From assembly GCF_030282845.1 (NCBI RefSeq), contig NZ_JASTWE010000014.1, forward strand, positions 1 through 64,000: 64,000 nt of DNA, read 5' to 3'. Origin of the DNA: Pseudodesulfovibrio pelocollis. Its GTDB lineage: Bacteria > Desulfobacterota > Desulfovibrionia > Desulfovibrionales > Desulfovibrionaceae. Under the pieces are notes generated by a model that saw only the letters and a list, made by a program, of their open reading frames with translations, was not told the origin of the DNA and did not search any database. The position numbers were made by a program, and so were the translations under genes. Positions 12,403 to 64,000 of the stretch are shown here, piece after piece; the stretch's first letter is position 1, and each line of letters opens with the position of its first letter.

Positions 12403-12484
12403 GGCGAGGAATAATCCCGGGCGCGGGAGGGTCAACCCATCAGGGGGCTGTTCCGCCATGATTTTTTTTGCTAGAACAACGGAC

Positions 12485-12736: not shown

Positions 12737-12790
12737 CCCCTCTGCCCTCCCGCCCGCCGACAGGCTGCCGGAACACTCCGGAGCAACGCC

Positions 12791-37977: not shown

Positions 37978-38026
37978 AAAAGCCGCTCCGGCTGCTATGA
38001 AAATGGCAAATCAGGAGCGGCTTTTT
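37978..38026 (+). terminator. Hairpin between transposon end and tnsA (terminator / RBS mask)
   Basis: Arms AAAAGCCGCTCC (37978-37989) and GGAGCGGCTTTTT (38014-38026) form a strong stem with a U-tract on its 3' side. It can end transcripts entering from glmS. The right arm also contains the AGGAG ribosome binding site of tnsA, nine bases before its ATG, so the same stem would hide that site in read-through RNA. Confidence 0.7.
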
Positions 38027-42581: not shown

Positions 42582-42585
42582 GCCC

Positions 42586-44097
42586 ATGCTCAATTTCCCC
42601 GTGCCATACCCTGAAGAGCTCATATACAGCACTGTGGCGCGAGCCGGAGTCCACTTCGGCATAACCAGCCCCAAGCGACTGCTCGACGAGGCCTTCGGCA
42701 ATCGAATGATCGTCGCCACGGTCGACCTGCCGTCCCACCTCGAAACCTTGTCCAAGCATTACCCACAGTCTCTGGGGCTCACCCCTGAGCAATTGGCATA
42801 CAAGCATACGCTGCTTCCGCTCTATGCGCCATTCGTCCCGGAAGCCCGGAGACAGAAATGCCTTCAATGGATGGCCCGCGCCTCCAAGGGGGCAGCCCAC
42901 CTATCCTTGGGCATCACCACTTCCCGAGTTAAACCCAGAAGGCATTTCAGACTATGCCCCTCTTGCCTGAATGAGCAGCTTGCTCGGTACGGGGAATATT
43001 ACTGGGAACGCCTATGGCAAGTTGCCGGCTGTGATGCCTGCCTCAAGCATGCAACGTTGCTTAAGACGCAACACAGGCTCCGCAACTATCACCGGCATGA
43101 ATTCATTGCGCTCACCCCGGAAAAGGCCATCGATCCCCAGCACAGCCTTCCTCCTCCGGTCGATAAGCGCATCGAACTCCGGGTCTTTGAGCTTCTCAAC
43201 CTCCCCTCCTCGCCATCTCCCTCCCTTGAACAATGGGGCCTCTTCTACAAGCACTTCGCTCACGACACGGGTATCACACGCGGCGACAAGGTCATATACG
43301 ATCTCCTCAAGCAGAAAATTCTAACCTGCTGGCCGGAGCGCCTGCTGCAGCGGATCGGGATTCTGATCGACGACAGCCAATCCTCTTGGTTGCGCTTGAT
43401 AATGCGCAAGCCCCGGAAGGCGTTCAGCTACATGGAGCATATCATCGTTCTGGAGGCTCTGCTGGGCCCAGATTGGCATATCCTCGAAGTGATGAACCAA
43501 GTGCGAAAACAGAAGCAAAGAAAAGCTCCTGCGGCCTCCCTCCACACCCCAAGAGTATCATCCGCCAAGCTCACCAGAATGCGCGAAACATGGATGGTCA
43601 TCCTGAAAACACACGGAACGAGGCAGGGAAGATTACTCGGTGCCGACTCCATTTACACCTGGCTTTACAGGCATGATAAAAAGTGGTTACTGGAAATCAA
43701 TGCGCGATATCGCAAATCAACTCGATCAGATGGGAAAAGGATTGATTGGCAAGCGCGGGACCTGGAAATTCTGGAACGGCTGGAGCATGTGAAAAGATCA
43801 CATGGGGACAAGCACACCGATCCACGACGAAGCGCGAACTGGTACCTCGCGCAAGCTGCTTGCCGGCACCTGTCGCGAAAGATGGACAAACTGCCGCTTT
43901 CGGCTGCATTTTTGAAAAAATACAGCGAAGACGTGGCCAGTTATCAGATTAGGCGGATTAACCGCGTTCTTCAGGACAAGGAATCATCAGCTGGCTCACT
44001 CCTCTACTGGGAACTCATGCGACTGTCAGGCCTGAACGAGCAGAGAATGACCAAGCGAACCAGAGAGTTCTTGCGCCAATCAGGGTGGTCAGCATGA
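42586..44097 (+). CDS. tnsD: Tn7 target selector TnsD (TniQ family)
   Basis: A 503-residue DNA-binding protein (Tn7 TnsD has 508). The TniQ zinc site is intact at Cys124, Cys127, Cys152 and His155, the same positions as in Tn7. TnsD binds the end of glmS and directs insertion just downstream of the gene, which agrees with where this element sits. It starts four bases after tnsC and overlaps tnsE by ATGA. Confidence 0.95.
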   Translation: MLNFPVPYPEELIYSTVARAGVHFGITSPKRLLDEAFGNRMIVATVDLPSHLETLSKHYPQSLGLTPEQLAYKHTLLPLYAPFVPEARRQKCLQWMARASKGAAHLSLGITTSRVKPRRHFRLCPSCLNEQLARYGEYYWERLWQVAGCDACLKHATLLKTQHRLRNYHRHEFIALTPEKAIDPQHSLPPPVDKRIELRVFELLNLPSSPSPSLEQWGLFYKHFAHDTGITRGDKVIYDLLKQKILTCWPERLLQRIGILIDDSQSSWLRLIMRKPRKAFSYMEHIIVLEALLGPDWHILEVMNQVRKQKQRKAPAASLHTPRVSSAKLTRMRETWMVILKTHGTRQGRLLGADSIYTWLYRHDKKWLLEINARYRKSTRSDGKRIDWQARDLEILERLEHVKRSHGDKHTDPRRSANWYLAQAACRHLSRKMDKLPLSAAFLKKYSEDVASYQIRRINRVLQDKESSAGSLLYWELMRLSGLNEQRMTKRTREFLRQSGWSA

Positions 44098-45698
44098 CCA
44101 AATACTTTCTCGACGGCATTGATGACAACGTGACGGTGTGGGAGATTGGCTCGCTCTTCAGAAGCCTCACTGGAAGCAAGTGGAACATCAACGTTAGCTT
44201 CTCACCACCTCAGTCAAAAAAATATACAAGTATATCTAACGCCTCGCTCCTAGCCAGAAGGCGGCTGCTCAGGGCAACTCAAACGTTCAAAAAACCCGGC
44301 CACCCGCTGAACTTCACCCTTTCGGGTACAAGCCATTGGGAAGTCAAAACGATCGGCCAATGCCCCATCGGTGATGGGTACTCAAAAAAACAAGAGTTCG
44401 GCCAATTCTGCTTCGTCTTCACAACCCCGGACGGCATAACCGTCTATCTCCCCCAGTTTGAACTGGCACGGATACTTTTCTTCCATGGAGGCTATCTTTC
44501 CAGAACCGCAATCGAATCGGACTGCTTGGAGACGGACTTCGCTGTGGAAATTGATGATAAAGACAACGCTGTCATTCGTGTGATGCCTTGTACCAGTTAT
44601 TCGCTCTCGCACCTCAATGATCCAACATGCCGCAATTATTTATCCTGGATATTGTTGAATGCCGACGTCAAAGGTTCCTACCGAAGTATCACAAAGTATC
44701 AACGGCTTTATGGGTACGACACCTACAAATACAGAAAATGGAAATTCCAATTTGATCCTCCACAACTTGAACAAGTCGATCTTTATGCACGCGGGCATTA
44801 TGAAACAAATTCCAAGTTGTTTTTTCTGTACGAAATTGACCGGATAGAAAACATCCCGAACACCCCGTTTCGGAGTGTCTCGATGGAACACCCAGAGTTT
44901 GAGAATACGATACATGGAGAAGGACATGGCGCTCGTCCTGCCGGAGGGGGATCAGATACTCCCACAATTGTCCATGATGATATCGTCTCAAATGCTAATA
45001 TCCAACCGGCAACATTGGAAAACGAACGCGTCACTATAACATTCAAACATCCATTCTACGTGGCTAAGGTCACCACAAAAGAAAAAAAAAGAGCCACATC
45101 GCACTCTGATCACGAAAACTCCGACTCCCAACCGCCCATAAGCACGGAAGAGGGAGTAGCAGATCACGGGCTCCCCGGAGGGGATTGGGCTACGTTGAAT
45201 GACGAAACGAACTACGATGATATTTTTGAGAACAAATTCAAATGCTTTTTGGCCATGATCAACGTTCTGATTGAAGCCCATGGATGCGTTCCCGTTTCAG
45301 AAAAGGTCATGCCCCTTCCCAGCGAAGGAAGGTGTACGAAGCACCAACTTTCAACAACGGGGGAACCAAGGAGCATGGCGATAATTGGTTTGGGTGTTGA
45401 CCACAAGACAGTATATCTACTTGAGGTCGACACCTCTGATGCTGAAAAGGCCCTGTCCACACAGCTGCTTGTCGTCGAGAACCAAGAGGACTGGGCCAAA
45501 AACCTTGATCGCCTCCAGCGGGAGATGCTTCGGGCATCCCTCAGATGGCCGAGAAAGCTGCTTGAAGAGCTTTGCGGGAAGGACCACCACATTGGGGTCA
45601 ATCACCCACAAACACCTTCTGACAACAAGGGCATTCTCCCTCCCGATTCAATTACTGGCTGGGCAGGACGGGTTTATGGGTGGATGCAGAATCTGTAG
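44094..45698 (+). CDS. tnsE: Tn7 target selector TnsE
   Basis: A 534-residue protein (Tn7 TnsE has 538) recognised from shared segments: QFELARILF, FQFDPPQ, NYDDIFENKF, VYLLEVDTSDAEKALST and GVNHP near the C-terminus. In Tn7, TnsE steers insertion to lagging-strand DNA during replication, especially on conjugating plasmids, by contacting the sliding clamp. The ATG overlaps the tnsD stop. It is richer in AT than the chromosome. A TAGGCCC/GGGCCTA palindrome overlaps its stop codon. Confidence 0.93.
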   Translation: MTKYFLDGIDDNVTVWEIGSLFRSLTGSKWNINVSFSPPQSKKYTSISNASLLARRRLLRATQTFKKPGHPLNFTLSGTSHWEVKTIGQCPIGDGYSKKQEFGQFCFVFTTPDGITVYLPQFELARILFFHGGYLSRTAIESDCLETDFAVEIDDKDNAVIRVMPCTSYSLSHLNDPTCRNYLSWILLNADVKGSYRSITKYQRLYGYDTYKYRKWKFQFDPPQLEQVDLYARGHYETNSKLFFLYEIDRIENIPNTPFRSVSMEHPEFENTIHGEGHGARPAGGGSDTPTIVHDDIVSNANIQPATLENERVTITFKHPFYVAKVTTKEKKRATSHSDHENSDSQPPISTEEGVADHGLPGGDWATLNDETNYDDIFENKFKCFLAMINVLIEAHGCVPVSEKVMPLPSEGRCTKHQLSTTGEPRSMAIIGLGVDHKTVYLLEVDTSDAEKALSTQLLVVENQEDWAKNLDRLQREMLRASLRWPRKLLEELCGKDHHIGVNHPQTPSDNKGILPPDSITGWAGRVYGWMQNL

Positions 45699-46633: not shown

Positions 46634-47131
46634 ATGGCCGAGCCGATTCACGACAAGATAAAACGATCCCTACAGGCAGCCGAAGGCTTGTATCACCGCC
46701 TGGTGCTGCTGGTGGGTGAGACCGGTTCCGGCAAGACCAGCGTTCTTCGGGCTATTGCCGAGGAATTCGGCTCGTCCGTCGTCAACGTCAATCTGGCGCT
46801 CTCGGGCGAACTGCTGGAACTGACAGCCAAGCAGAGGTCGCTTCGACTACCGGGCATTCTCGACCAGATCGCGGACCAGGCTCAGTCACCCGTGGTGCTG
46901 GATAATCTCGAGATCCTTTTCGACAAGGATCTCCAGCAGGACCCCTTGCGCCTGCTGCAGGGCATTTCAAGAAACCGGGCCGTGGTGGCTTCGTGGAACG
47001 GAACCATGAATTCCAGGAGGCTTTTGTACGCCGAAACCGGCCATCCCGAGTACCGCAGCTATGACTCGGTTGATGCCATGATTGTGGGCATGGATGGCAC
47101 GGCCACGGTCGATTCGGCAAAAAAACAATAG
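46634..47131 (+). CDS. brxF: BREX-3 P-loop protein BrxF
   Basis: A 165-residue ATP-binding protein with Walker A GETGSGKT at 28-35 and the Walker B-like VVLDNLEILF. Length, motif context and position just before brxC match BrxF, the marker of type 3 BREX systems. AAGGAG precedes the ATG. Its biochemical role is unknown beyond being a small ATPase-like component of the system. Confidence 0.88.
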   Translation: MAEPIHDKIKRSLQAAEGLYHRLVLLVGETGSGKTSVLRAIAEEFGSSVVNVNLALSGELLELTAKQRSLRLPGILDQIADQAQSPVVLDNLEILFDKDLQQDPLRLLQGISRNRAVVASWNGTMNSRRLLYAETGHPEYRSYDSVDAMIVGMDGTATVDSAKKQ

Positions 47132-50878
<3,747 letters not shown>

Positions 50879-50880
50879 GA

Positions 50881-50934
50881 GTGACTAAGCGAGTGACCAA
50901 CTTCGCCGAGTTTGGTCACCCGCAAAGTGACCAA
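50881..50934. repeat. Clustered GTGACCAA repeats between brxC and pglX
   Basis: The 85-base gap holds GTGACTAA (50881), GTGACCAA (50893), its inverse TTGGTCAC (50912) and GTGACCAA (50927). The central pair can form a hairpin with a loop of 11 bases. They may be a protein-binding array or a leftover of recombination at this junction. Confidence 0.6.
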
Positions 50935-50963
50935 GCTGAGACAAAAGACGAAAGCCAAGGATT

Positions 50964-53774
50964 ATGAAGATGAAAGAAACCAGTTTGTTCGACTCGCTGC
51001 TTGAAGAGACGCAGAAGCCCTCCGGCCCGGTGACTTGCCTCGGCATGACCTTCGAGAACGATGAGGCCCGCCGCGCCCACTTTACCGAGGAGCTGCGCAA
51101 GAAGCTGCGGGACCCGGAGTTCCGCAAGATCGAAGGCTTTCCCATCGGCAGCGACGAAGACATCCTGAACCTGAGCGATCCGCCGTACTACACCGCCTGC
51201 CCGAACCCATGGATTGCCGATTTCATAGCTGAATGGGAGGCGCAGAAGCCAGAGCAGCCTGAAGGCTATCACTATCACCGTGAGCCTTTTGCGGCCGACG
51301 TGAGCGAGGGGAAAAATGACCCCATTTACAACGCGCACTCCTACCACACCAAGGTGCCGCACAAGGCCATCATGCGTTACATCCTCCACTACACACAGCC
51401 GGGGGACATCGTGTTCGACGGATTCTGCGGGACCGGCATGACGGGCGTGGCTGCGCAGATGTGTGGCGATCGTGAAGTGGTAATGTCTCTCGGCTATCAG
51501 GTGAAGCCGGACGGGACCATTTTGCAGGAAGAGGTGGATGAAGGTGGCAAAAAGGTTTGGAAGCCTTTTTCAAAGCTTGGTGTCCGCAAAGCTGTACTAA
51601 ACGACCTTTCACCGGCGGCGACGTTCCTCGCGCATAACTACAACCTTTATGTTGATACGGCATCATTTGAAAATGAAGTTAAGAAATTCATCAAAATAAT
51701 CGAGCGAGAATGTGGATGGATGTATGAAACAACTCATACAGACGGGGTGACCAAGGCGAAAGTGAACTACACAATCTGGTCAGATGTATTTGTCTGTCCT
51801 GATTGCACTAATGAGATTGTATTCTGGAATGTTGCAGTCGACAAAGAATCTGAGACAGTAAACGATGAGTTTCAATGTCCTAATTGCCAGGCCAGCTTAA
51901 CAAAGCGCAATATGGACCGTGCTTGGGTTACCACTTATGACCGATTCTTGGGAGAGACGATTCGGCAGGCCAAGCAGATACCTGCTTTGATCAATTATAG
52001 CGTTGGTGGAAAACGATATGAGAAGAAACCTGACGAGGGTGACTTCGAAATTTTGGAGAAGATAGAAAACGAGGGATTAGACGGATGGTTTCCTATCAAT
52101 CGCATGATTGAGGGGCATGAGTCTAGGAGAAATGATCCGGTTGGTATCACGCACACTCATCACTTTTATTCACCTCGAAATCTATCAGTGATGTCGAAGA
52201 TTTTGTATTTGGCTGACAAATCTGAACTTACTCCCTTCAAGTTCGGTTTTCTGAATACCTCTTGGCACGCCACGCAGATGAGGCAATACAACCCAGGTGG
52301 CGGGCACAGACCTAGAACGGGTACTTTGTATATGCCTTCCATCCATAGTGAAGGTAACATGATTCCCGTTTACAAGAAAAAGCTGAACCAGCTTGTTCAG
52401 TTTTATAAAGTCAAGTCTCATCGAGATCGGGTTGCCATTATTCAGACCATGTCGTCTACGGTGGACTCATCTATCGAAGCGGGTTTGGACTATGTATTCA
52501 TTGATCCGCCTTTCGGCGCAAATCTGAACTACTCAGAACTAAATTCAATATGGGAGGCATGGCTTAAAGTAGGTACGAATAATGCCGAGGAGGCAATTGA
52601 AAATAGGTCACAGAACAAGGGGATTGATGAATACCGATCTCTTATGACTCAGTGCTTTCGACAGGCATACAACCAATTGAAACCTGGGCGCTGGATGACT
52701 GTAGAGTTTTCTAATACAAGCGCTGGTATTTGGAACAATATTCAGACGGCAATATCAGACGCTGGATTTATTGTCGCGAATGTCTCTGTTCTAAATAAAA
52801 AGCAGGGGTCGATAATGGCTTACACTACCCCAACTGCGGTCAAACAAGACCTCGTCATCTCGGCCTACAAACCTAATGGTGGGTTTGAAGACCGTTTCCA
52901 GAAGGAGGCGCAGACTGAAGAAGGCGTGTGGGATTTTGTCCGCACGCACTTGAAGTATCTGCCGGTAACCAAGCTCCAAGGCGTTTTGTTGCTAATGGTG
53001 CCCGAGCGCGATCCGCGCATCCTATTCGACCAGATGATCGCATTCTATGTCCGCAAGGGTTACCCGGTGCCGATCTCAAGCCAGGAATTTCAGATCGGGC
53101 TGGCACAACGCTTCATCGAGCGTGACGGCATGTATTTCCTGCCGGATCAGGTGGCCGAATACGACCGCAAGAAGATGACTTCCGGTGCCCCACAGCAGCT
53201 TTCGATGTTTGTCTCCGACGAGGCCTCGTCGATCCAATGGCTCCGTCAGCTCATCAAGGAAAAGCCGCAGACCTTCTCCGACATCACCCCGCAGTTCATG
53301 CAGCAACTCGGCGGCTGGAGCAAGAACGAGGCCCAGCTCGATCTGCGCGAACTCCTGAACCAGAACTTCCTCTGCTACGACGGCAAAGGCCCGGTGCCCG
53401 AGCAAATCCACGCCTACCTTTCCACCAATTGGAAGGAACTGCGCAACCTGCCCAAGGATGACCCGGCGCTGGTGACCAAAGCCCGTGACCGGTGGTATGT
53501 GCCCGATCCCAAAAAGCAGGGGGACCTCGACAAACTGAGGGAGCGAGCCCTTCTTAAGGAATTTGAGGAGTACAAGCAGCGAGCCAAGAAGTTTACCACC
53601 CGAGAGAAATTCCGTTTGGAAGCTGTCCGCGCCGGATTCAAGAAAGCCTGGCAGGAACGCGACTACGCCGTCATCGCCGCCGTGGCCGACAAGATCCCCA
53701 ACAACGTCCTTGAAGAAGATCCCAAACTGCTCATGTGGTACGACCAGGCGGTAACACGGATGGGAGGGGAATAA
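50964..53774 (+). CDS. pglX: BREX-type adenine-specific DNA methyltransferase PglX
   Basis: A 936-residue methyltransferase. The SAM-binding motif FDGFCGTGMTG has Asp152 as its first acidic residue; the catalytic DPPF motif is at 514-517. Two CxxC pairs (CPDC, CPNC; about 275-310) suggest a zinc site in between. In BREX systems PglX methylates adenine in one strand of a short asymmetric site to mark self DNA. GC content changes inside the gene: the first ~500 and last ~850 bases are GC-rich while about 51600-52910 is AT-rich, which suggests exchange of the central part. The stop overlaps the nuclease gene start as TAATG. Confidence 0.88.
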   Translation: MKMKETSLFDSLLEETQKPSGPVTCLGMTFENDEARRAHFTEELRKKLRDPEFRKIEGFPIGSDEDILNLSDPPYYTACPNPWIADFIAEWEAQKPEQPEGYHYHREPFAADVSEGKNDPIYNAHSYHTKVPHKAIMRYILHYTQPGDIVFDGFCGTGMTGVAAQMCGDREVVMSLGYQVKPDGTILQEEVDEGGKKVWKPFSKLGVRKAVLNDLSPAATFLAHNYNLYVDTASFENEVKKFIKIIERECGWMYETTHTDGVTKAKVNYTIWSDVFVCPDCTNEIVFWNVAVDKESETVNDEFQCPNCQASLTKRNMDRAWVTTYDRFLGETIRQAKQIPALINYSVGGKRYEKKPDEGDFEILEKIENEGLDGWFPINRMIEGHESRRNDPVGITHTHHFYSPRNLSVMSKILYLADKSELTPFKFGFLNTSWHATQMRQYNPGGGHRPRTGTLYMPSIHSEGNMIPVYKKKLNQLVQFYKVKSHRDRVAIIQTMSSTVDSSIEAGLDYVFIDPPFGANLNYSELNSIWEAWLKVGTNNAEEAIENRSQNKGIDEYRSLMTQCFRQAYNQLKPGRWMTVEFSNTSAGIWNNIQTAISDAGFIVANVSVLNKKQGSIMAYTTPTAVKQDLVISAYKPNGGFEDRFQKEAQTEEGVWDFVRTHLKYLPVTKLQGVLLLMVPERDPRILFDQMIAFYVRKGYPVPISSQEFQIGLAQRFIERDGMYFLPDQVAEYDRKKMTSGAPQQLSMFVSDEASSIQWLRQLIKEKPQTFSDITPQFMQQLGGWSKNEAQLDLRELLNQNFLCYDGKGPVPEQIHAYLSTNWKELRNLPKDDPALVTKARDRWYVPDPKKQGDLDKLRERALLKEFEEYKQRAKKFTTREKFRLEAVRAGFKKAWQERDYAVIAAVADKIPNNVLEEDPKLLMWYDQAVTRMGGE

Positions 53775-55609
53775 TGTTTCTCAGAGAAGTCGTTCTTCAA
53801 AATTTCCGTGGCTACAAGAATCAGCATCGAATTCAGATAGACCAGCTCACGGCGTTTATCGGAAAAAATGATGCGGGAAAGTCCTCCATATTTGATGCCT
53901 TGGCCGTTTTTTTTGACCACCCATTGGGCAAAATTGACGCTTCAGATATTTGTGTTCATGCCGGGGGCAGCGGCGAATTAAGAATCGGCTGCGTTTTTTC
54001 GGATTTTCCTGATTCGATCACCATTGACGCGTCTTCTGTCACAACGCTTGCAGACGAGCATCTACTGAATGTCGATGGCTTACTTGAAATCCATAAGGTC
54101 TACGAGTTTTCCGACGGAGCGCTAAAGAAGCCAAAGGTGTTTGCGATTGCCAACCATCCAACGGCCAACGGCTTCGATGGTCTGTTATCAAAAAAGAACG
54201 CTGAATTGAAAAAAGCTGGTGAGGCTGCGAATATCGATGCCGGAGTAGATAAACGATCTAATGCAGCCCTTAGAAAGGCCATTTGGGGGAGCGCAGCCGA
54301 TCTGGAATTTGGGCCTTCCGAAATCCAACTAGACAAGGAAGATGCCAAAGCCATCTGGGAACAGCTCTCCAAATACCTACCCGAATACGCCCTTTTCCGA
54401 GCAGACCGCCCGTCAACAGACGAAGACTCAGAAGTCCAGGACCCTCTCAAGGTCGCCATAAAACAGGCAATCGAAGAAGTGCAAGCTGAACTGGACGCAG
54501 TGAAGGAAAAGGTCAAAGCACGCACGCTTGATGTAGCCAATCGTACCATTACGAAGCTTGCTGATTTCGATAGTGCGCTTTCATCGCAACTCAACCCGAA
54601 TTTCAAATCAGACCCAAAATGGGACGGACTTTTCAAACTCTCTCTAACAGGAGACGATGAAATACCAATCAACAAGAGGGGCAGCGGTGTCCGGAGATTG
54701 GTTCTGTTCAGCTTCTTCCGTGCTGAAGCGGAACGGCTTCGAGAAGAGCATAAGAAAGGGAATATTATTTACGCAGTGGAAGAGCCGGAGACTGCACAGC
54801 ATCCAGACAACCAGCGAAAGGTCATTGAAGCATTGCAGGCTATCGCCGAAGCCGATGGTTGCCAAGTTATGCTTACCACACACGTCCCTGCTTTGGCGTC
54901 ACTATTACCAATCACTTCCATTCGATATGTCTGTTCTCACGACCTAAATGGCAGAGATGTCTGTATTGCAGATGATGATGTAATCAAGACGGTTGTCGCT
55001 GATCTGGGAATCATCCCTGACAAACGGGCAAAAGTTTTGGTGTGTGTAGAAGGTCCGCATGACCTGCAATTTTTGAAGCGTATTAGTGGCCATCTCCGAG
55101 CGGAGGACGCATCCGTCATTGATATGTTTGCAGATCCAAGAGTTGCGTTGGTCGTCTTGGGTGGAAGCACCTTGAAGGAATGGGTAAATCAGCATTACCT
55201 AAAAAATGTGGGGCTTCCAGAAGTCCATATTTACGACCGTGACGAACTGAAGAACGGAAAATACAAATACCAGGACGATAGAGATGCTGTAAATGCAAGA
55301 GGAGACGGGTCCATTGGATTTTTGACTTCAAAGCGGGAAATGGAGAATTACCTACACATTGATGCAATAAGTGAAGCATTGCAGCCTGTCGTTGGCTTTA
55401 ACTTCACGTTTGGGCTTTCAGACGACTGTGATGTTGAAACCGAAATAAAAACACTGTTGAACGGGCAAGGAAAAATCCAGAGGCGTTCGATTAAACATTG
55501 GCTTAACGAAGACGCGGCAAGTCGTATGACCATAGATCGCTTGAAAGAGCGAAACGGCTATGAAGAGATCAAAGGCTGGTTCACTGAGATCGCAAATAGG
55601 GTCGTTTGA
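53774..55609 (+). CDS. OLD-family ATP-dependent nuclease (ATPase plus TOPRIM)
   Basis: A 611-residue protein. The N-terminal ABC-type ATPase has Walker A GKNDAGKS (30-37) and Walker B YAVEEPETAQHP. The C-terminal TOPRIM nuclease domain has Glu426 in VCVEGPHD and the acidic pair Asp488/Asp490 in YDRDE. OLD nucleases (relatives include GajA of Gabija) cut DNA and serve in phage defence. It lies between pglX and the helicase, a position outside the standard BREX-3 gene list, with one-base overlaps on both sides. It is notably AT-rich compared with brxC and the helicase. I start at 53774 rather than the upstream GTG at 53735, because of the TAATG coupling. Confidence 0.9.
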   Translation: MFLREVVLQNFRGYKNQHRIQIDQLTAFIGKNDAGKSSIFDALAVFFDHPLGKIDASDICVHAGGSGELRIGCVFSDFPDSITIDASSVTTLADEHLLNVDGLLEIHKVYEFSDGALKKPKVFAIANHPTANGFDGLLSKKNAELKKAGEAANIDAGVDKRSNAALRKAIWGSAADLEFGPSEIQLDKEDAKAIWEQLSKYLPEYALFRADRPSTDEDSEVQDPLKVAIKQAIEEVQAELDAVKEKVKARTLDVANRTITKLADFDSALSSQLNPNFKSDPKWDGLFKLSLTGDDEIPINKRGSGVRRLVLFSFFRAEAERLREEHKKGNIIYAVEEPETAQHPDNQRKVIEALQAIAEADGCQVMLTTHVPALASLLPITSIRYVCSHDLNGRDVCIADDDVIKTVVADLGIIPDKRAKVLVCVEGPHDLQFLKRISGHLRAEDASVIDMFADPRVALVVLGGSTLKEWVNQHYLKNVGLPEVHIYDRDELKNGKYKYQDDRDAVNARGDGSIGFLTSKREMENYLHIDAISEALQPVVGFNFTFGLSDDCDVETEIKTLLNGQGKIQRRSIKHWLNEDAASRMTIDRLKERNGYEEIKGWFTEIANRVV

Positions 55610-58503
55610 TGAATCAACCGCTTTGGCAATACAGCACCGTTCATAACGGCGCCTGCAAGGTCATCGAAGAACAGACCTTGTGGGGGCAGACGGTGTGCCG
55701 AGTCTGGTTGCCGAACCAGGACGCGGTGGTGCGCGTGCCCCGCTCCGCTTTGCGGCCGTTGAGTGCCGACCTGCGGCCAGAGATCGAGGCCGGACGCATT
55801 GCCTATGTGGCCGCCGCAGCAAAGGTAGCCGAGGTGCTTGAAGGCTCCACCAGCGCCACCGACGGTCATGTGCTGCTGGCTCCCATGGAGTCCAACGTCA
55901 TTCCGCTACCGCACCAGATCCACGCCTTGTCCCGGGCCATCTCCGGCGACCGCGTGCGCTACCTGCTGGCCGACGAGGTGGGTCTCGGTAAGACCATCGA
56001 GGCCGGTCTGGTCATGCGCGAGCTCAAGCTGCGCGGGCTGGTTCGACGAATTTTGGTCGTCTCTCCCAAAGGCATCGCTACCCAGTGGGTGGCGGAAATG
56101 CAGACCCATTTCAACGAACAGTTCCAGCTCGTGCTGGGCGACGACATCGGCACATTGCAACGCCTGGCTCCAGGGGCGGATCACCGGAGCTCAGCCTGGT
56201 CGATGTTCGATCAGGTCATCGTTTCCCTGGATTCGGTCAAGCCCATGGACAAGCGGCGCGGCTGGACCGCCGAGCGCGTTGCCGAATACAACCGCAGCCG
56301 ATTCGAGGATCTGATTACCGCCGGTTGGGACCTGGTAGTGGTGGACGAAGCGCACCGCCTGGGTGGAAGCACCGATCAGGTCGCCCGCTACAAACTCGGC
56401 AAGGGCCTGGCGGAGGCCGCGCCCTATGTACTGCTCCTTTCGGCTACACCCCACCAGGGGAAGACCGATGCCTTCCATCGGCTGATGAACCTGCTGGATG
56501 ACGATGCCTTTCCGGATATGGACAGCGTCTCCCGCGACCGGGTGGCTCCGTATGTCATCCGTACCGAGAAGCGCAAGGCCATCGATGCCGACGGCAAGCC
56601 GCTCTTCAAACCCCGGCGGACGCAGATGGCCCCGGTGGCCTGGGAGAGCCGTCACCAACTGCAGCAGCTTCTCTACGAGGCGGTGACCGACTATGTGCGC
56701 GAGGGCTACAACCAGGCCCTGCGCGAGAAGAAGCGCCACATCGGCTTTCTGATGATCCTGATGCAGCGCCTGGTGGTCTCCAGCACCCGGGCGATCCGCA
56801 CCACTCTGGAGCGTCGGCTTGCGGCACTCAAGGATGGTGAGCAACAAGCCAGCCTGCGCCTGGCGGAACTCGAAAATAGCGCGGAGGGATCGGAAAGCCC
56901 AGACGATGAAATAGCCGAGCTGTACGACATGGACGGCCAGGAATTGCTCGATGAGCTGCTGAAATGCCATGTGTCGGCTCTGCAGAGCGAAGGCAGCCAT
57001 GTTGAGACCCTGCTCGACGCGGCGGTCCGTTGTGAACAGGCTGGCCCCGACGCCAAGGCCGAGGCGCTGATCGAGTGGATCTACAAGCTACAAGCCGAGG
57101 AAAACGAACCGGATCTGAAGGTGCTGATCTTCACGGAGTTCGTTCCCACCCAGCAGATGTTGAAGGAGTTTCTGGAAGCCCGGGGAATCTCTGTGGTCAC
57201 CTTGAACGGCTCCATGGACATGGGGGAACGTGGGGCAGCCCAGGATGCCTTCCGTAAATCGCATCGCGTATTGGTCTCCACCGATGCGGGCGGTGAGGGC
57301 CTGAACCTGCAGTTCGCCCACGTCATCATCAACTACGACATCCCCTGGAACCCCATGCGGCTGGAGCAACGTATCGGTCGTGTGGACCGTATTGGTCAGT
57401 CAAAAACCGTACAGGCGATCAATTTCGTTTTTGAAGATTCGGTCGAGTTCCGCGTGCGCGAGGTGCTGGAGCAGAAACTCTCGGTGATCTTCGAAGAGTT
57501 CGGCATCGACAAGACCGGTGACGTGCTCGACTCGGCCCAGGCCGGTGAGTTGTTCGAGGATGTGTTCGCCTCGGCCATCCTTAATCCTGACGGTATCGAG
57601 ACCTCCGTCGAGAACACGGTGGCCAAGATTCGTGATGAGATTCAGCAGGTGCGCGAGTCCTCCGCCATCTATGGCATCTCCGAAGAGCCGGATGTTCAAA
57701 CCGCTGAACGTCTGCGCTCCCATCCGCTACCCCATTGGGTGGAACGGATGACGGTCGGTTACCTCAACTCCCATGGCGGTGTGGCCAGTCGCAAGCGCTC
57801 CTGGTGGGACCTGAATTGGCCGGACGGTCAGGAACACCGCAAAGCCGTATTCAGCGCCCGAGAAGCGAATCGCTTGACCGATGCAACCCTGCTCAACCTT
57901 GAAAACAGCCGTGTCCGTGGTCTTGCCCTGAACCTGCCCCAGGTCGCGGCAGGTCAGCCATTGCCTTGCGTAACCGTGAGCGGACTACCGGCCAGCATTA
58001 CGGGTTTCTGGGGGCTGTTTGAGATTCGTCTTCAGGCCGGAATGCACCAGAAGACACAACTCCTGCGCATCCCCATGGTGCGGCGTGGCTATGTCAGCGT
58101 GTTCTTGAGCGAGGAAGGCAAACTGTTTCTGCCCACGGCTCGACATATCTGGGATGCGCTGCAGACTGCGGAAGCCCAGGTGCAGGCATCCCTCGGCCAG
58201 GATGAATCCATCACCGCCCATGAGCGGTTGCAAGAAGCGGCCGAACAGGCCGGACAGGAGCTGTTCGACGCATTAAAGCAGGCACATCTCTACTCTGTGG
58301 TTCGCGAAGAGAAACGTGGCGTCGTATCCTTTGCCTCGCGCCGCAAGGCCATAGAACGGGTTGGACTGCCGGAGGTGCGGCAGTTCAGACTGTCCCGTTG
58401 CGATGCGGACGAATCCGAGTGGCGGCATGAACTACAATCAGCACGGCAGGTCGTGCCGGAGATTCGGCCGCTGTTGGCGTTACGAATAAACAACCACATG
58501 TAA
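55609..58503 (+). CDS. brxHII: SNF2-type helicase, BrxHII-like
   Basis: A 964-residue DEAD/DEAH superfamily 2 helicase of the SNF2/RapA kind. Motif I is DEVGLGKT (ending at Thr129), motif II is DEAH (246-249), motif III is SATPHQGKT, and motif VI is QRIGRVDRIGQ. Length and neighbours fit BrxHII of type 3 BREX, which would remodel or translocate on DNA for the system. An alternative is DrmD of DISARM, but brxF and brxC speak for BREX. The gene after it is not pglZ, as would be usual, but a sugar epimerase that begins in the TAATG overlap. Confidence 0.88.
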   Translation: MNQPLWQYSTVHNGACKVIEEQTLWGQTVCRVWLPNQDAVVRVPRSALRPLSADLRPEIEAGRIAYVAAAAKVAEVLEGSTSATDGHVLLAPMESNVIPLPHQIHALSRAISGDRVRYLLADEVGLGKTIEAGLVMRELKLRGLVRRILVVSPKGIATQWVAEMQTHFNEQFQLVLGDDIGTLQRLAPGADHRSSAWSMFDQVIVSLDSVKPMDKRRGWTAERVAEYNRSRFEDLITAGWDLVVVDEAHRLGGSTDQVARYKLGKGLAEAAPYVLLLSATPHQGKTDAFHRLMNLLDDDAFPDMDSVSRDRVAPYVIRTEKRKAIDADGKPLFKPRRTQMAPVAWESRHQLQQLLYEAVTDYVREGYNQALREKKRHIGFLMILMQRLVVSSTRAIRTTLERRLAALKDGEQQASLRLAELENSAEGSESPDDEIAELYDMDGQELLDELLKCHVSALQSEGSHVETLLDAAVRCEQAGPDAKAEALIEWIYKLQAEENEPDLKVLIFTEFVPTQQMLKEFLEARGISVVTLNGSMDMGERGAAQDAFRKSHRVLVSTDAGGEGLNLQFAHVIINYDIPWNPMRLEQRIGRVDRIGQSKTVQAINFVFEDSVEFRVREVLEQKLSVIFEEFGIDKTGDVLDSAQAGELFEDVFASAILNPDGIETSVENTVAKIRDEIQQVRESSAIYGISEEPDVQTAERLRSHPLPHWVERMTVGYLNSHGGVASRKRSWWDLNWPDGQEHRKAVFSAREANRLTDATLLNLENSRVRGLALNLPQVAAGQPLPCVTVSGLPASITGFWGLFEIRLQAGMHQKTQLLRIPMVRRGYVSVFLSEEGKLFLPTARHIWDALQTAEAQVQASLGQDESITAHERLQEAAEQAGQELFDALKQAHLYSVVREEKRGVVSFASRRKAIERVGLPEVRQFRLSRCDADESEWRHELQSARQVVPEIRPLLALRINNHM

Positions 58504-59432
58504 TGAAAAAAAATAGAATCCTGATCATCGGCTCATCTGGTCTTGTCGGCACTGCTCTCACTTCAGCTCTTCTTTCCAAGGGAAACGATGTCGTTTGCTT
58601 TGATCTGCGGGCACAAGGAGAAGAACAAGGTGATATTTGTGACCGAGACCGAGTGCGAGATGCTGTATCGGGTGTCGACGGCATAGTCCATTTGGCCGCC
58701 GTCTCGCGTGTTCTCTGGGGGGAACGCGACCCCGATCTCTGTTGGGCGACCAACGTTGGCGGACTGAGTAACGTGCTCTATGCCGCAGCGCAATCAGTAC
58801 GTAAGCCTTGGCTAATTTTCACCAGCAGCCGCGAAGTATACGGGCAACCCGAATCGCTACCGGTTACTGAAGAAGCTCCGCTACGCCCGGTGAACGTATA
58901 TGGGCGCGCCAAGGTGGAAGGCGAACGGCTCGTCGCGGAGGCACAACGCGCTGGCATCAGAGCCTGCACCATTCGGCTGTCGAACGTATTCGGCTCGACC
59001 TGCGACCACGCCGACCGGGTAGTCCCTGCATTCACCCGTGCCGCTGCTCTCGGAACGGAGTTGCGAGTTGACGGGCGCGATCACACTTTCGACTTCACGC
59101 ACATCGATGACGTCACCCGCGGCATAGTCGCTCTAATCGAACTGCTGGGCATGGGAGACTCGCCGCCCCCTCCGATCCACTTTGTCAGTGGACAGCCAAC
59201 GACGCTATGGGAGCTCGCTAACTTGGCCGCTCAACTCGGTCAGCAGGACTCCCCAATCCGACTTGCGGCTCCTCGCAACTTCGACGTTGAGAGCTTCGTC
59301 GGAGACTCCTCGCGAGCAAAGGCACTGCTCGGGTGGCATCCGTTGGTTTCTTTAGAGGAAGGCATCTCCCGGCTCATTCAGGGGTTTCGTGACGTTCGCC
59401 CGACCGTCAAGGTGCGGGAGGTCGCGCGATGA
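58503..59432 (+). CDS. NAD-dependent nucleotide-sugar epimerase/dehydratase
   Basis: A 309-residue extended short-chain dehydrogenase. The NAD-binding motif GSSGLVG is at 10-16; the catalytic pair is Tyr133 and Lys137 (YGRAK) with the Ser/Thr at FTSSREVYG. Such enzymes change nucleotide-activated sugars, by 4-epimerisation or dehydration. The ATG shares a base with the helicase stop, and the 3' end overlaps the next gene by ATGA. Codon choice differs from both the chromosome and the BREX genes. As the first of four overlapping genes it would supply a sugar donor to the glycosyltransferase. Confidence 0.9.
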   Translation: MKKNRILIIGSSGLVGTALTSALLSKGNDVVCFDLRAQGEEQGDICDRDRVRDAVSGVDGIVHLAAVSRVLWGERDPDLCWATNVGGLSNVLYAAAQSVRKPWLIFTSSREVYGQPESLPVTEEAPLRPVNVYGRAKVEGERLVAEAQRAGIRACTIRLSNVFGSTCDHADRVVPAFTRAAALGTELRVDGRDHTFDFTHIDDVTRGIVALIELLGMGDSPPPPIHFVSGQPTTLWELANLAAQLGQQDSPIRLAAPRNFDVESFVGDSSRAKALLGWHPLVSLEEGISRLIQGFRDVRPTVKVREVAR

Positions 59433-61780
59433 AGATATTAAAGGTCATCCACGGCTACCCAATGCGCTACAACGCCGGGTCCGAGGTGTACAGTCAGACA
59501 CTATGCCACGCACTCGCTGATCGCCACGAGATTCATGTGTTCACCCGGGAAGAAGACGCCTTTGCGCCTGACTTCCAACGTCGTGTGGAGCAGGACGCCG
59601 ATGACCCTCGCGTCACCGTGCACGTGGTCAACAACCCCCGCTTCAAGGATCGCTACCGCGCAGCGGGGATCGATCATCGCTTCGCTGAGGTTCTCGAACT
59701 TGTGTGTCCTGACATCGTTCATGTCGGTCACCTGAACCACCTCTCCACCTCACTCGTGCGAGAAGCCGAGCTTCGCGAAATCCCGATCGTCTTCACGCTC
59801 CACGACTACTGGCTGATGTGCCCCCGTGGTCAGTTCATGCAAATGTTCCCCGAGGATTCTAACAACCTCTGGGCTGCGTGCGATGGACAGGAGGACCGCA
59901 AGTGCGCCGAACGCTGCTACGCCCGCTACTTCAGCGGAGCGCCTAATGAGTTAGACACGGATGTCGCCTATTGGACAGACTGGGTCGCGCGCAGGATGCG
60001 GCATGTCCGAGAGATGGCCGAGCTCGTCGACCTCTTCATCGCGCCCGCGCGATACCTTCTTGACCGATACCGCGACGATTTCGGACTGCCTGAGCGCAAA
60101 CTTGTCTACCTCGACTACGGATTCGCGCGAGAGAGAATGGCCGGGCGTTGTCGGGTCGACGCCGAACCTTTTACGTTCGGATACATCGGTACACACATCC
60201 CCGCGAAGGGGATTCACCATCTCATCCGAGCCTTCGGCTCGCTTCGGGGGGAGGTGCGGCTTCGCATATGGGGTCGGCCCCGCGGACAGGACACCGACGC
60301 ACTCCAACGGATCGCAGGGGCACTTCCAAGAGACACAGCGGGCCGAGTCGAGTGGCTCCCAGAATACAAGAACCATGAGATCGTCCGCGACGTGTTCGAC
60401 CGATGCGACGCGATCATCGTACCCTCGGTGTGGGTAGAAAACTCCCCACTCGTCATCCACGAGGCACAACAGGCTCGCGTCCCTGTCGTCACCGCCAACG
60501 TTGGTGGGATGGCGGAGTATGTCCACCACGAGGTCAACGGGCTGCTCTTCGAGCACAGGTCAGTGGCGTCACTTGCCGAGCAGATGCAGCGCCTCGTCGA
60601 CGACCCGAGGCTCGCCGCACAACTCGGTGACCGAGGATACCTGTTCAGCGACTCAGGAGACATCCCGGCGGCCGAGGAACACGCTCGCAACGTCGAAGCT
60701 GTATACAAGCGCATCATCAAACGGCGTGCCTCGGCGCAAGTGCTTCGTCAGGCTGGCCCCTGGCGTGTCACGTTCGACACGAATCCGGACACCTGCAACC
60801 TACGGTGCTTGATGTGCGAAGAGCACTCACCACACAGTTCGCTTCAGATACAACGAAAAGAAGGTGGGAAGCCACAACGCCTCATGCCTTTTGAAATGAT
60901 CGAGCGCGTGATCGCGGAGACGGCACATCACGGTCTCCGCGAGGTTATCCCTTCTACGATGGGAGAACCTCTGCTGTACGAGCACTTCGAGGGCATCATC
61001 GATCTTTGCCACCGCTACGCCGTCAAGCTGAACCTGACTACGAACGGAACCTTCCCTCGACTCGGTGCCTCGGCATGGGCAGAGCGGATCGTCCCGGTCA
61101 CTTCGGACGTGAAGATTTCCTGGAACGGTGCTACTAGGGCTACCCATGAGGCCATCATGCTCGGGAGCCGCTGGGAGAAGGCGATCGAGAACGTTCGCGA
61201 CTTCATCATGGTGCGCGACGCCCACTCCGAGGCCGGAGGGAATCGCTGCCGAATCACCTTCCAGCTCACCTTCCTCGAGGCAAACGTGGCTGAGCTAGCC
61301 GACATGGTGCGTTTAGCCATCGGCCTCGGTGTCGACCGCGTGAAAGGGCACCACCTCTGGACGCACTTTGACGAAATTCATGAACAGTCGATGAGGCGTA
61401 ATTCCGACGCAATTGAACGCTGGAACCAAGCTGTACTAGCGGCGCGAGATGCTGCTGCCGAGCGGACTCTACCGAACGGGAGGCACGTGCTCCTCGAAAA
61501 CATATTCTTGCTGGACCCCTCGGCGACGGATAATCTGGCACCCGGCGGACCTTGCCCCTTCCTGGGGCAGGAGGCTTGGGTTAGCGCTGTCGGACGCTTC
61601 AACCCCTGCTGTGCCCCCGATGCGCAGCGGCGGACGCTCGGAGAGTTCGGCAACCTTACCGACCAGAACTTCATGAAAATTTGGAACGGGGAAGCTTACC
61701 GCGAGCTCATGGCCACATACCATAACCACTCACTCTGCCTCAGTTGCAACATGCGCAAGCTGGCTGGAGGTAAAGAATGA
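59429..61780 (+). CDS. GT4 glycosyltransferase fused to a SPASM-type radical SAM enzyme
   Basis: A 783-residue fusion. Residues 1 to about 430 are a GT-B fold glycosyltransferase of family 4, with FGYIGTHIPAKGIHHL and the acidic site ENSPLVIHEAQ. Residues about 440-783 are a radical SAM domain with CNLRCLMC (Cys456, Cys460, Cys463) and the TMGEP glycine-rich strand, ending in a SPASM-like region (GRFNPCCAP, then CLSCNMRK with Cys770 and Cys773) for extra Fe-S clusters. One chain could thus add a sugar and then change it by radical chemistry, or act on the same acceptor twice. I know of no characterised protein with this exact pairing. Confidence 0.88.
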   Translation: MKILKVIHGYPMRYNAGSEVYSQTLCHALADRHEIHVFTREEDAFAPDFQRRVEQDADDPRVTVHVVNNPRFKDRYRAAGIDHRFAEVLELVCPDIVHVGHLNHLSTSLVREAELREIPIVFTLHDYWLMCPRGQFMQMFPEDSNNLWAACDGQEDRKCAERCYARYFSGAPNELDTDVAYWTDWVARRMRHVREMAELVDLFIAPARYLLDRYRDDFGLPERKLVYLDYGFARERMAGRCRVDAEPFTFGYIGTHIPAKGIHHLIRAFGSLRGEVRLRIWGRPRGQDTDALQRIAGALPRDTAGRVEWLPEYKNHEIVRDVFDRCDAIIVPSVWVENSPLVIHEAQQARVPVVTANVGGMAEYVHHEVNGLLFEHRSVASLAEQMQRLVDDPRLAAQLGDRGYLFSDSGDIPAAEEHARNVEAVYKRIIKRRASAQVLRQAGPWRVTFDTNPDTCNLRCLMCEEHSPHSSLQIQRKEGGKPQRLMPFEMIERVIAETAHHGLREVIPSTMGEPLLYEHFEGIIDLCHRYAVKLNLTTNGTFPRLGASAWAERIVPVTSDVKISWNGATRATHEAIMLGSRWEKAIENVRDFIMVRDAHSEAGGNRCRITFQLTFLEANVAELADMVRLAIGLGVDRVKGHHLWTHFDEIHEQSMRRNSDAIERWNQAVLAARDAAAERTLPNGRHVLLENIFLLDPSATDNLAPGGPCPFLGQEAWVSAVGRFNPCCAPDAQRRTLGEFGNLTDQNFMKIWNGEAYRELMATYHNHSLCLSCNMRKLAGGKE

Positions 61781-63438
61781 GCTGGCGATCTTTCCAGGTC
61801 TCATCCTGCGGCACGCATCACCTCGATGAAGGCGGGCAGCCCGTGTACAGCGAACGCTTCGATGAGGTCCTGAAGTTCCACGCGCCCGGGTTGGCTCCCG
61901 TCCTCCGCTGTGGTTTGGCGTGGCACGTGCTGAGCGATGGTACAGCCGCATACGACCGGCGCTTCATCCGAACCTTCGGTTTCTACGAAGAACTGGCCGC
62001 CGTTGTGGCCCCAGATGGTTGGCATCACATCTTTGCCGACGGGAACAACGCCTATACGCGCCGCCACGCCTGGTGCGGCAACTTTCAGCAGGGGCGCTGC
62101 GCCGTTCGTGACCACGACGGTAACTACTTTCACATCACGCCATGTGGTAAGGATGCCTACCCGACCCGATGGCGCTATGCAGGCGACTATCGCGACGGAA
62201 TCGCAGCCATACAGACAGCCGATGGGTACTCCACCCACATCGAACTCGAAGGTTCGCTTCTCCACGGGGAGTGGTTCGTCGACCTCGACGTATTCCACAA
62301 GGGCTTCGCGCGCGCCCGTGACGAAGACGGTTGGATGCATGTCGACTTCCAGGGTCGACCGGTCTACGCACGACGCTTTCAAACCGTCGAACCATTCTAC
62401 AATGGCCAAGCACGTGTAGAGCGTTTCGATGGAACACTTGAAATCATCGACGAGACCGGGGCGAGCTTAGTCGAGCTACGACCAGCGCGGTGCTCGGAAT
62501 TTGCAAGCCTCTCCGGAGACATGGTGGGGTTTTGGCGAACCCAGACCATCGGCACCGCCGTCGAACTCGGCGTCTTCGATGTGCTGCCAGCGGCCGAACG
62601 CGAGGTCGCTGATCAGTGTGGACTCCACACCGACGGAGCTCGGCGACTTCTCCGAGCACTTGGTGAGCTGGACCTTGCCACGCGGCAGGAAAATCAGTGG
62701 ACGCTCACGGCGCGTGGGGAGCTGCTCCAGGCCGACCATCCCCTCACGCTTGCCGACGCCGCGGTCGAGTACGCAGGGCCGTTCACTGTGATGTGGGGAC
62801 GCCTGCCCGATGCGCTCCGAAAGAGCACTTGTTGGACCGCACCAGACGTGTTCGGTGAGGTCGCACGCGACGACTCACGTCGTCTCGGCCACCACCGCAT
62901 GCTGCGAAGTTATGCGCGGCACGACTACGCTGAGGTCTGCCGCGCCCTTGATCTCTGCGGCGACGAGCGCCTGATCGATGCAGGAGGCGGGCTAGGTGTA
63001 CTCGCGCAACTGATCCTGGACGCGCACCCGTCCGTCTATATTACCGTCCTCGAGCGACCGGAGGTGGTGGCGATGGCGCCATCTGCTTCCAGGGTGTGCT
63101 GGAGGAGCGGGAACCTGTTCGAACCTTGGGAGATAGAAGCGGATGCCGTGGTCTTGTCGCGCGTACTCCACGACTGGAACGACACAGAGGCGATGCAAAT
63201 CCTCAGGCATGCACGGGCCGCGCTCCCCCGCCACGGGCGGCTCTTCATCGTGGAGATGTTGCTCCTAGACCAAAGCGTGTCCGGTGCGCTATGCGATCTA
63301 CACTTGCTTATGGCTACCGGCGGGCGCGAACGTTCGGCGGAACATTTTGGGCGACTTCTCGCTGCCACCGGCTTCGAGTTCGCCGCAGTTCGAAGACTAA
63401 CGGCCCTTCCGTCGGTCATCGTGGGGGTGGCGTCATGA
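61777..63438 (+). CDS. WG-repeat domain fused to a SAM-dependent methyltransferase
   Basis: A 553-residue fusion. Residues 1 to about 235 contain roughly eight degenerate WG-type repeats (for example DGWHHIFADGNNAYTRR and DGWMHVDFQGRPVYARR), probably a beta-structured binding domain. Residues about 245-553 are an O-methyltransferase of the plant/antibiotic type: an N-terminal helical dimerisation part (GTAVELGVFDVLP) and the SAM motif DAGGGLG starting at Asp401, later LSRVLHDWND. The methyl acceptor is unknown. It overlaps both neighbours by ATGA. Confidence 0.88.
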   Translation: MSWRSFQVSSCGTHHLDEGGQPVYSERFDEVLKFHAPGLAPVLRCGLAWHVLSDGTAAYDRRFIRTFGFYEELAAVVAPDGWHHIFADGNNAYTRRHAWCGNFQQGRCAVRDHDGNYFHITPCGKDAYPTRWRYAGDYRDGIAAIQTADGYSTHIELEGSLLHGEWFVDLDVFHKGFARARDEDGWMHVDFQGRPVYARRFQTVEPFYNGQARVERFDGTLEIIDETGASLVELRPARCSEFASLSGDMVGFWRTQTIGTAVELGVFDVLPAAEREVADQCGLHTDGARRLLRALGELDLATRQENQWTLTARGELLQADHPLTLADAAVEYAGPFTVMWGRLPDALRKSTCWTAPDVFGEVARDDSRRLGHHRMLRSYARHDYAEVCRALDLCGDERLIDAGGGLGVLAQLILDAHPSVYITVLERPEVVAMAPSASRVCWRSGNLFEPWEIEADAVVLSRVLHDWNDTEAMQILRHARAALPRHGRLFIVEMLLLDQSVSGALCDLHLLMATGGRERSAEHFGRLLAATGFEFAAVRRLTALPSVIVGVAS

Positions 63439-64000
63439 CCGGGGTACAGTGGCAGATCCCACCATCGATGCTGCACCTCCTTGAACAAGCGCCAACTGAC
63501 CGCGCCGTCGTCGTTCTCCTCAGGCACTCAGTCCGTAATCACCTGCCGCCGGATGACGTAGGCTACGCTCTCCCAATCACCGATGTTGGGCAAAGACTCG
63601 CGCTCAAGCTGGGAGGCCTACTCCGCGGTCGGCTGTGCACGCTCCAATCGAGCCCTCTTTTGCGTTGCGTCCAAACAGCTCAGGCAGTCGCGGAAGGAGC
63701 TGGCACGGACATCACCGCTGTCCCAAATCGACTCCTTGGCGATCCGGGCGTGTTTGTCCTCGACGGGCGGCGCGCCTGGGCGAACTGGGAGCAGCTCGGC
63801 CACAAGGGCGTGATACGTCACCTCATCAACGAAACTGGGGCGCTGCCAGGTATGGCGCGCCCCGACGAGGCCGCGCGCTTCCTTGTTCAGTCGATGCTTG
63901 CCGAAGCCGCGAGCCGCCCCGGCATACATGTCTTTGTGACACACGACTCGCTCGTGATAGCAACGGCCGCACGCCTGCTCGGCAAGCAGTTCGGTCTCGA
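63435..64000 (+). CDS. Histidine phosphatase superfamily protein (cut by window end)
   Basis: The first 188 residues of a phosphoglycerate-mutase-like phosphatase. The catalytic LRHSVRNH motif gives His31 and Arg34; a second active-site histidine is in FVTHDSL. Members remove phosphate from sugars, small molecules or proteins. The start overlaps the methyltransferase stop by ATGA. The 3' end lies outside the window, so the full length is unknown. In this operon it could dephosphorylate a sugar or a pathway intermediate. Confidence 0.85.
   Translation, partial: MTGVQWQIPPSMLHLLEQAPTDRAVVVLLRHSVRNHLPPDDVGYALPITDVGQRLALKLGGLLRGRLCTLQSSPLLRCVQTAQAVAEGAGTDITAVPNRLLGDPGVFVLDGRRAWANWEQLGHKGVIRHLINETGALPGMARPDEAARFLVQSMLAEAASRPGIHVFVTHDSLVIATAARLLGKQFGL

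What the first reader, a model, noticed from the sequence alone, without database searches (positions are those of the whole stretch)
59429..61780. Single chain joins a GT4 glycosyltransferase to a SPASM radical SAM domain
Both halves keep their key residues: the GT4 acidic site, and Cys456/460/463 plus C-terminal cysteines. Radical SAM dehydrogenases and epimerases acting on aminoglycoside sugars are known, but as separate enzymes. A fusion implies that sugar transfer and radical modification act on the same substrate.
Basis: partly seen in the sequence, partly recalled or inferred. Interest (0 to 1): 0.75.

Follow-up and report, generated by a model that had tools for sequence, protein, structure and literature searches.

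The report
Sugar-transfer radical-SAM fusion inside BREX operon
The fused sugar-transferring and radical enzyme is real and already described in Wolbachia's phage WO, but here it belongs to a small four-gene metabolic cassette, found from free-living bacteria to insect symbionts, that moves as a unit and in this genome sits exactly between two genes of a BREX anti-phage operon, which raises a testable link between an unknown sugar metabolite and bacterial defence.

Summary
Confirmed: 59429-61780 is one intact 783-aa ORF with a GT4 glycosyltransferase (aa 1-435) and a radical SAM enzyme with a Pfam-SPASM tail (446-775). It is not a merged-gene artefact: 50+ full-length fused homologues exist (mostly 60-86% identity), about 22 other loci carry the halves as adjacent genes, and both halves are under purifying selection. 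The fusion is already in the literature as WD0613 (UC3) of Wolbachia phage WO's Undecim Cluster.

New here is the context. The gene is second in a four-gene cassette (SDR, GT4-rSAM, WG-repeat O-methyltransferase, His-phosphatase with a nucleotidyltransferase-like C-terminal half). Close copies in unrelated hosts share essentially only this block. In this genome it sits seamlessly between brxHI and pglZ of a BREX-3 operon, genes that overlap by 4 bp in cassette-free BREX-3 loci, near Tn7-like tns genes. Other copies lie beside type I restriction (some with hsdR fragments left upstream), Dnd, Wadjet and Gabija genes.

Most likely it makes a small soluble glycoside. A role in defence is plausible, not shown. 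The tail has cysteines for only one auxiliary cluster (Twitch/BtrN-like), so 'SPASM' is loose.

The parts
58503..59432 (+). Cassette gene 1: extended SDR, NAD-dependent sugar epimerase/dehydratase (309 aa); start codon overlaps the brxHI stop (ACATGTAATGAAA)
   Evidence: Pfam Epimerase 2e-43; nearest solved relatives include many nucleotide-sugar SDRs; junction sequence
59429..61780 (+). Cassette gene 2, the finding: GT4 glycosyltransferase fused to radical SAM enzyme (783 aa)
59429..60733 (+). GT4 half (aa 1-435); fold closest to sucrose-phosphate synthase (Z 36.3), MshA (35.5), HepE, BshA; invariant EX7E E337/E345; four invariant Cys (131, 151, 159, 163) in the N-domain
60764..61777 (+). Radical SAM half (aa 446-783): CxxxCxxC 456/460/463; auxiliary-cluster tail C709-x17-C727, C728, C770-x2-C773
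61777..63438 (+). Cassette gene 3: WG-repeat domain (aa 1-240, nine invariant His, six of them in repeat phase) fused to a small-molecule-type O-methyltransferase (aa 245-553)
63435..64000 (+). Cassette gene 4, part inside the window: histidine phosphatase (RHS..H) with a nucleotidyltransferase-like C-terminal half (GG..DLD); runs on to 64748 of contig C14
   Evidence: the NTase reading rests on the motif only
55606..58503 (+). BrxHI helicase of the surrounding BREX-3 operon (upstream neighbour; pglZ and brxA follow the cassette at C14:64736-67494)
   Evidence: PADLOC BrxHI 1642 bits, PglZ 1100 bits, BrxA 406 bits; synteny with BREX-3 of Leisingera
46634..53774 (+). brxF (46634-47131), brxC (47147-50878), pglXI (50964-53774)
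37970..45698 (+). Tn7-like transposition genes tnsA, (tnsB), tnsC, tnsD/tniQ, tnsE next to the BREX operon
   Evidence: the tnsB ORF had no Pfam hit and is named by position only

Best explanation
The protein is a true bifunctional enzyme of a small mobile metabolic cassette. Proposed order: the SDR shapes a nucleotide sugar; the GT4 half transfers it to a small, probably phosphorylated, soluble acceptor; the radical SAM half abstracts a hydrogen from the glycoside or acceptor (dehydrogenation, epimerisation or a related step); the WG-repeat protein binds the intermediate and O-methylates it; the histidine phosphatase removes the phosphate. The product would be a small intracellular glycoside. 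The cassette moves as a unit and has repeatedly entered defence loci, here between brxHI and pglZ of a BREX-3 operon, so its product most likely serves in conflict with phages or other mobile elements. Shown: architecture, conservation, shared operon, unit of transfer, position in BREX. Inferred: every chemical step, the substrate and the role in defence.
For: Fused and split forms interchange within one operon, so both halves act in one pathway. The GT fold is nearest enzymes with small soluble acceptors: sucrose-phosphate synthase, MshA, BshA; the first two use phosphorylated acceptors and are followed by a phosphatase (established knowledge), and a phosphatase homologue is found in 64 loci. 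The methyltransferase is of the natural-product type (MmcR, DtpM, PhzM, CalO1). No room for a precursor peptide: the genes overlap. Unit of transfer equals the cassette: window/L007 58516-64742, L078/L079, L070/L074. Inserted at the brxHI|pglZ joint, which overlaps by 4 bp in cassette-free BREX-3. Other defence neighbours: type I R-M in L076, L077, L078; hsdR fragments upstream in L070, L074, L076, L077; DndC/DndD in L072, Wadjet in L068, Gabija in L066.
Against: No substrate, product or phenotype is known. Radical SAM similarity to BtrN is weak and limited to the tail; the core is nearer protein/peptide maturases. The defence link is uneven: none of the hsdR genes found in 44 further genomes, many of them Myxococcota, could be placed near the cassette, and random control regions also held some defence genes. 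The hsdR-linked copies are partly related to each other. Wolbachia and Arsenophonus versions lack the phosphatase and have degenerate methyltransferase motifs.
Confidence: 0.5

Rival explanations
1. Surface glycan modification: the cassette makes or decorates exopolysaccharide or LPS, as proposed for the Undecim Cluster of phage WO; it could still block phage adsorption.
For: Proposed in PMC9203015 and PMC4701759 (ExpE7-like GT domain, UDP-sugar genes); GT4 and SDR are common in such loci; HepE and WaaG folds match the GT half.
Against: No flippase, polymerase, priming transferase or transporter in the cassette or next to it in the window; several copies sit among defence genes rather than polysaccharide genes; natural-product type methyltransferase.
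Confidence: 0.2
2. Protein or peptide modification: the radical SAM and GT halves act on a protein, perhaps the histidine-rich WG-repeat domain encoded next door.
For: Core of the rSAM half is nearest sulfatase maturases and PqqE; the WG domain is the most conserved part of gene 3, with nine invariant His, and is kept where the methyltransferase is degenerate or replaced by an aldolase.
Against: No room for a precursor peptide between overlapping genes; GT fold is that of enzymes with small acceptors; the tail has cysteines for one cluster only.
Confidence: 0.13
3. Neutral or selfish cargo: an antibiotic-like or symbiosis-related metabolite cluster that merely settles in genomic islands, where defence genes also settle.
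For: Present in few genomes (2 of 395 of the phylum) and in symbiont plasmids and prophage; no defence neighbours seen near many copies.
Against: Insertion at the joint of two BREX-3 genes and beside hsdR, same strand with overlapping or closely spaced genes, is more than shared residence in an island; hsdR within 10 kb in 3 of 67 loci against about 0.2 expected.
Confidence: 0.13
4. Sequencing or assembly error that joins two genes.
For: None beyond the fact that some relatives have two genes.
Against: More than 50 fused homologues align across the joint; fused and split forms fall in supported clades.
Confidence: 0.005

Closest known systems
WD0613 / UC3 of the Undecim Cluster (Wolbachia phage WO, MN180251.1)
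   Same: Same full-length GT4-radical SAM-SPASM fusion, 50% identity over 779 aa; flanked by the same SDR (WD0612) and WG-repeat O-methyltransferase (WD0614)
   Different: No phosphatase; adds GlmU-like, phytanoyl-CoA dioxygenase, ABC transporter, two threonine aldolases; prophage of an insect symbiont, not a BREX operon; methyltransferase motifs degenerate
Sucrose-phosphate synthase, MshA and BshA (GT4 enzymes with small acceptors)
   Same: Fold of the GT half (Z 33-36, rmsd 2.5-2.9) and EX7E active site
   Different: 17-22% identity; not fused to a radical SAM enzyme; acceptor of this family unknown
BtrN and other Twitch/SPASM radical SAM enzymes
   Same: CxxxCxxC core and a C-terminal auxiliary-cluster tail with cysteines for one cluster; BtrN matched over the tail
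   Different: E about 0.01 only; no detectable full-length similarity; core nearer anSME and PqqE
BREX type III operon (Leisingera pBMJM1_5)
   Same: brxF-brxC-pglX-brxHI-pglZ-brxA order, 28-53% identity
   Different: Here the four-gene cassette is inserted between brxHI and pglZ, and an AAA ATPase gene between pglX and brxHI

Membership tests
GT4 retaining glycosyltransferase | GT-B fold with EX7E motif | tested here: met
   Pfam hits, E337/E345 invariant, GT-B structural matches
Radical SAM superfamily | CxxxCxxC motif and superfamily core | tested here: met
   C456/460/463 invariant; Pfam Radical_SAM above cut-off
SPASM-domain radical SAM (two auxiliary clusters) | about seven conserved C-terminal cysteines | tested here: not met
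   Five invariant Cys only (709, 727, 728, 770, 773) although Pfam SPASM scores above its cut-off
Twitch-type radical SAM (one auxiliary cluster, as BtrN) | cysteines for one auxiliary cluster in a shortened SPASM fold | tested here: inconclusive
   Cys pattern fits; BtrN profile hit over this part at E 0.0098; cluster content not measurable here
Undecim Cluster of phage WO | SDR + GT-rSAM fusion + WG-methyltransferase core | tested here: met
   38%, 50% and 32% identity in the same order
Undecim Cluster of phage WO | eleven genes within prophage WO | tested here: not met
   Only the three-gene core is shared; the window is a BREX/Tn7-like region
BREX type III (host operon of the cassette) | brxF, brxC, pglXI, brxH, pglZ, brxA | tested here: met
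   this classifies the surroundings, not the cassette
Prokaryotic viperin (pVip) | viperin-type radical SAM making ddhNTPs | tested here: inconclusive
   PADLOC pVip 4.6e-6 over the radical SAM core only, a level expected of general superfamily similarity; activity not testable here
Known anti-phage defence system | demonstrated protection | not testable with these tools
   Cassette proteins have no specific PADLOC model

The most novel reading that the evidence does not exclude
The cassette is an unrecognised chemical-defence module: it makes a small glycoside that blocks phages or other mobile elements, inserted into BREX, type I R-M and other defence loci to be co-expressed with them, and the same core was taken up by Wolbachia phage WO and other insect symbionts, where its product protects the symbiont or its host.
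Probability: 0.25. Interest if true: 0.85.

Novelty: new member of a known kind. Interest (0 to 1): 0.58.

Why it matters
The function of the Undecim Cluster, highly expressed in Wolbachia and transferred among insect symbionts, is unknown. Finding its three-gene core as a compact mobile cassette in free-living, partly culturable bacteria, and inside a BREX operon, gives a tractable system for finding the product and a concrete hypothesis (link with defence) that can be tested in laboratory strains. It also adds an uncharacterised enzyme set to the list of BREX cargo.

Tried and rejected
Sequencing-error merger: rejected by homologues and selection. RiPP maturase with a precursor peptide in the cassette: no intergenic room. 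Phage carriage in general: no match in IMG/VR to the patterns; in GenBank phages only Wolbachia WO records cover most of the protein. Insertion by its own recombinase: none in the cassette; direct repeats flank it in a few loci (L057, L067, L076, L077), and in L076/L077 they are hsdR 5' fragments, not transposon ends. Viperin: only a generic core match. General defence enrichment by PADLOC: flanking genes matched 262 families against 22 in random regions of the same genomes, but at the level of regions the controls also held CRISPR and type II R-M hits, so I do not rest the claim on it. BtrN was not seen in the structure-search list, which the GT half fills; this says nothing about the rSAM fold.

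Full report
Observation. The ORF at 59429-61780 is intact, 783 aa, with GT4 domains at aa 17-404, Radical_SAM at 455-591 and Pfam SPASM at 709-774. CxxxCxxC (C456, C460, C463), the GT4 EX7E pair (E337, E345) and the tail cysteines are invariant in 56 aligned fused sequences, one of them from phage WO. Against the nearest relative (L007, 86% identity) dN is 0.06 (GT), 0.08 (rSAM) and 0.22 (linker) at dS about 0.8, so both halves are kept by selection and the joint is real. AlphaFold2 models the chain with pLDDT 92 and pTM 0.87. The own genome holds only this copy; its other matches are weak GT hits.

A family with fused and split forms. A scan of one genome per species gave 80 loci in Pseudomonadota, Myxococcota, Planctomycetota, Verrucomicrobiota, Chloroflexota, Nitrospinota, Bacteroidota and one Hodarchaeota MAG. 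Of the GT genes, about 58 are fused to the radical SAM gene (in a few, such as L031, L035 and L036, to the SDR as well) and 24 are separate. Two of the 24 (L063, L065) may be assembly errors, since in L063 the SDR is broken as well. Separate genes overlap by 4 bp in several marine gammaproteobacteria. A tree of the GT part needs 6 changes between fused and split, at least 4 of them forced by supported branches. This interchange shows that both activities belong to one pathway; it does not show that they share a substrate.

The cassette. The gene order is SDR, GT4-rSAM, WG-repeat O-methyltransferase, histidine phosphatase. A phosphatase homologue was found in 64 loci; in 23 it carries the extra C-terminal half with a GG...DxD motif that I read as a nucleotidyltransferase from the motif alone. 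In this genome gene 4 runs beyond the window to C14:64748. In the window the four genes overlap at every joint.

What moves. Close copies in unrelated hosts share DNA essentially only over the cassette: L078/L079 (Pseudoalteromonas and Alteromonas, 92%) over 9073-14576, L070/L074 over 9097-14568, L018/L063 with some 500 bp of leader, and window/L007 over 58516-64742, from SDR codon 5 to the end of gene 4. The cassette has no recombinase of its own.

Where it sits here. Upstream are Tn7-like tnsA, tnsC, tnsD and tnsE, then brxF, brxC, pglXI, an AAA/AriA-like gene and brxHI; downstream are pglZ, brxA, zacA and zacB. In two cassette-free BREX-3 plasmids brxHI and pglZ overlap by 4 bp. In the window the cassette lies exactly at that joint, with the SDR start overlapping the brxHI stop and the pglZ start overlapping the end of gene 4.

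Other defence neighbours. Type I R-M genes lie near the cassette in L076, L077 and L078. Fragments of the hsdR 5' end, some 40-50 codons, lie directly upstream of the cassette in L070, L074, L076 and L077; in the first two no hsdR is nearby, which I read as scars of an earlier stay beside hsdR. DndC/DndD in L072, Wadjet JetA and JetD in L068 and Gabija in L066 are further cases. hsdR lies within 10 kb of the cassette in 3 of 67 searched genomes, against about 0.2 expected from the number of hsdR genes and genome sizes (my arithmetic by hand; Poisson about 0.001; L076 and L077 are related in the tree). In the 44 genomes, many of them Myxococcota, I could place no hsdR near the cassette. A PADLOC tally of neighbours against random regions was suggestive only.

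Chemistry. The GT half folds like sucrose-phosphate synthase and MshA (Z 36.3 and 35.5), enzymes with small phosphorylated acceptors that are followed by a phosphatase (established knowledge); the cassette has a phosphatase. The methyltransferase is nearest antibiotic-type O-methyltransferases. The radical SAM core is nearest sulfatase maturases and PqqE, its tail BtrN at E 0.01. The WG domain is better conserved than the methyltransferase (59% against 50% mean identity to the window) and has nine invariant His, six about 35 residues apart. In Wolbachia and Arsenophonus the methyltransferase motifs look degenerate while the WG domain is kept, and in L031 a class II aldolase follows a WG-like stretch in the gene after the cassette's WG gene. 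So the WG domain may be the constant part and the methyltransferase a variable one.

What is known. The fusion is described for WD0613: GT plus radical SAM plus SPASM (PMC4701759; PMC9203015), as is the KWG-repeat methyltransferase fusion WD0614; syntenic homologues in a few free-living bacteria were noted there. I found no paper in the held library that links this gene set to BREX or defence, but that library is partial.

Verdict. A real, conserved bifunctional enzyme of known architecture and unknown function; new are the cassette as unit of transfer and its place inside a BREX operon. It is rare: 2 of 395 genomes of the phylum, this one included.

Noticed in passing
53735-55609: AAA_15/AriA-like ATPase gene inserted between pglXI and brxHI of the same BREX-3 operon; a second cargo gene in that operon.
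   Followed up: partly
37970-45698: Tn7-like tnsA, tnsC, tnsD/tniQ and tnsE next to the BREX operon; TniB/TniQ genes near the cassette in L018 suggest carriage by such elements more than once.
   Followed up: partly
contig C14:67498-70535 (L088:7498-10535): ZacA and ZacB homologues downstream of brxA.
   Followed up: no
61777-62500 and relatives: WG-repeat domain with nine invariant histidines, six of them about 35 residues apart, one per repeat; possible metal or ligand site.
   Followed up: partly
L031, L035, L036, L033, L043, L054: Variant cassettes followed by carbamoyltransferase-like, class II aldolase or a second radical SAM gene; in L031, L035, L036 and L059 SDR, GT4 and rSAM form one chain.
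   Followed up: partly
L057:9792-9881 / 14785-14867; L067:9785-9929 / 14777-14924: Direct repeats of about 90-155 bp flank the cassette in two planctomycete MAGs; origin unknown.
   Followed up: no
L061: Split GT4 and radical SAM genes on a 9-kb contig of a Hodarchaeota MAG; binning error not excluded.
   Followed up: no
L087 (Arsenophonus plasmid CP132902.1): Cassette core on a 21-kb symbiont plasmid together with panB, panC and panE.
   Followed up: no
L072 and L073: Two contigs of one genome are 99.99% identical over 22 kb; probably one place counted twice.
   Followed up: yes
59819-59917 (aa 131-163 of the GT half): Four invariant cysteines (131, 151, 159, 163) in the N-terminal GT domain, possibly a metal site.
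   Followed up: no
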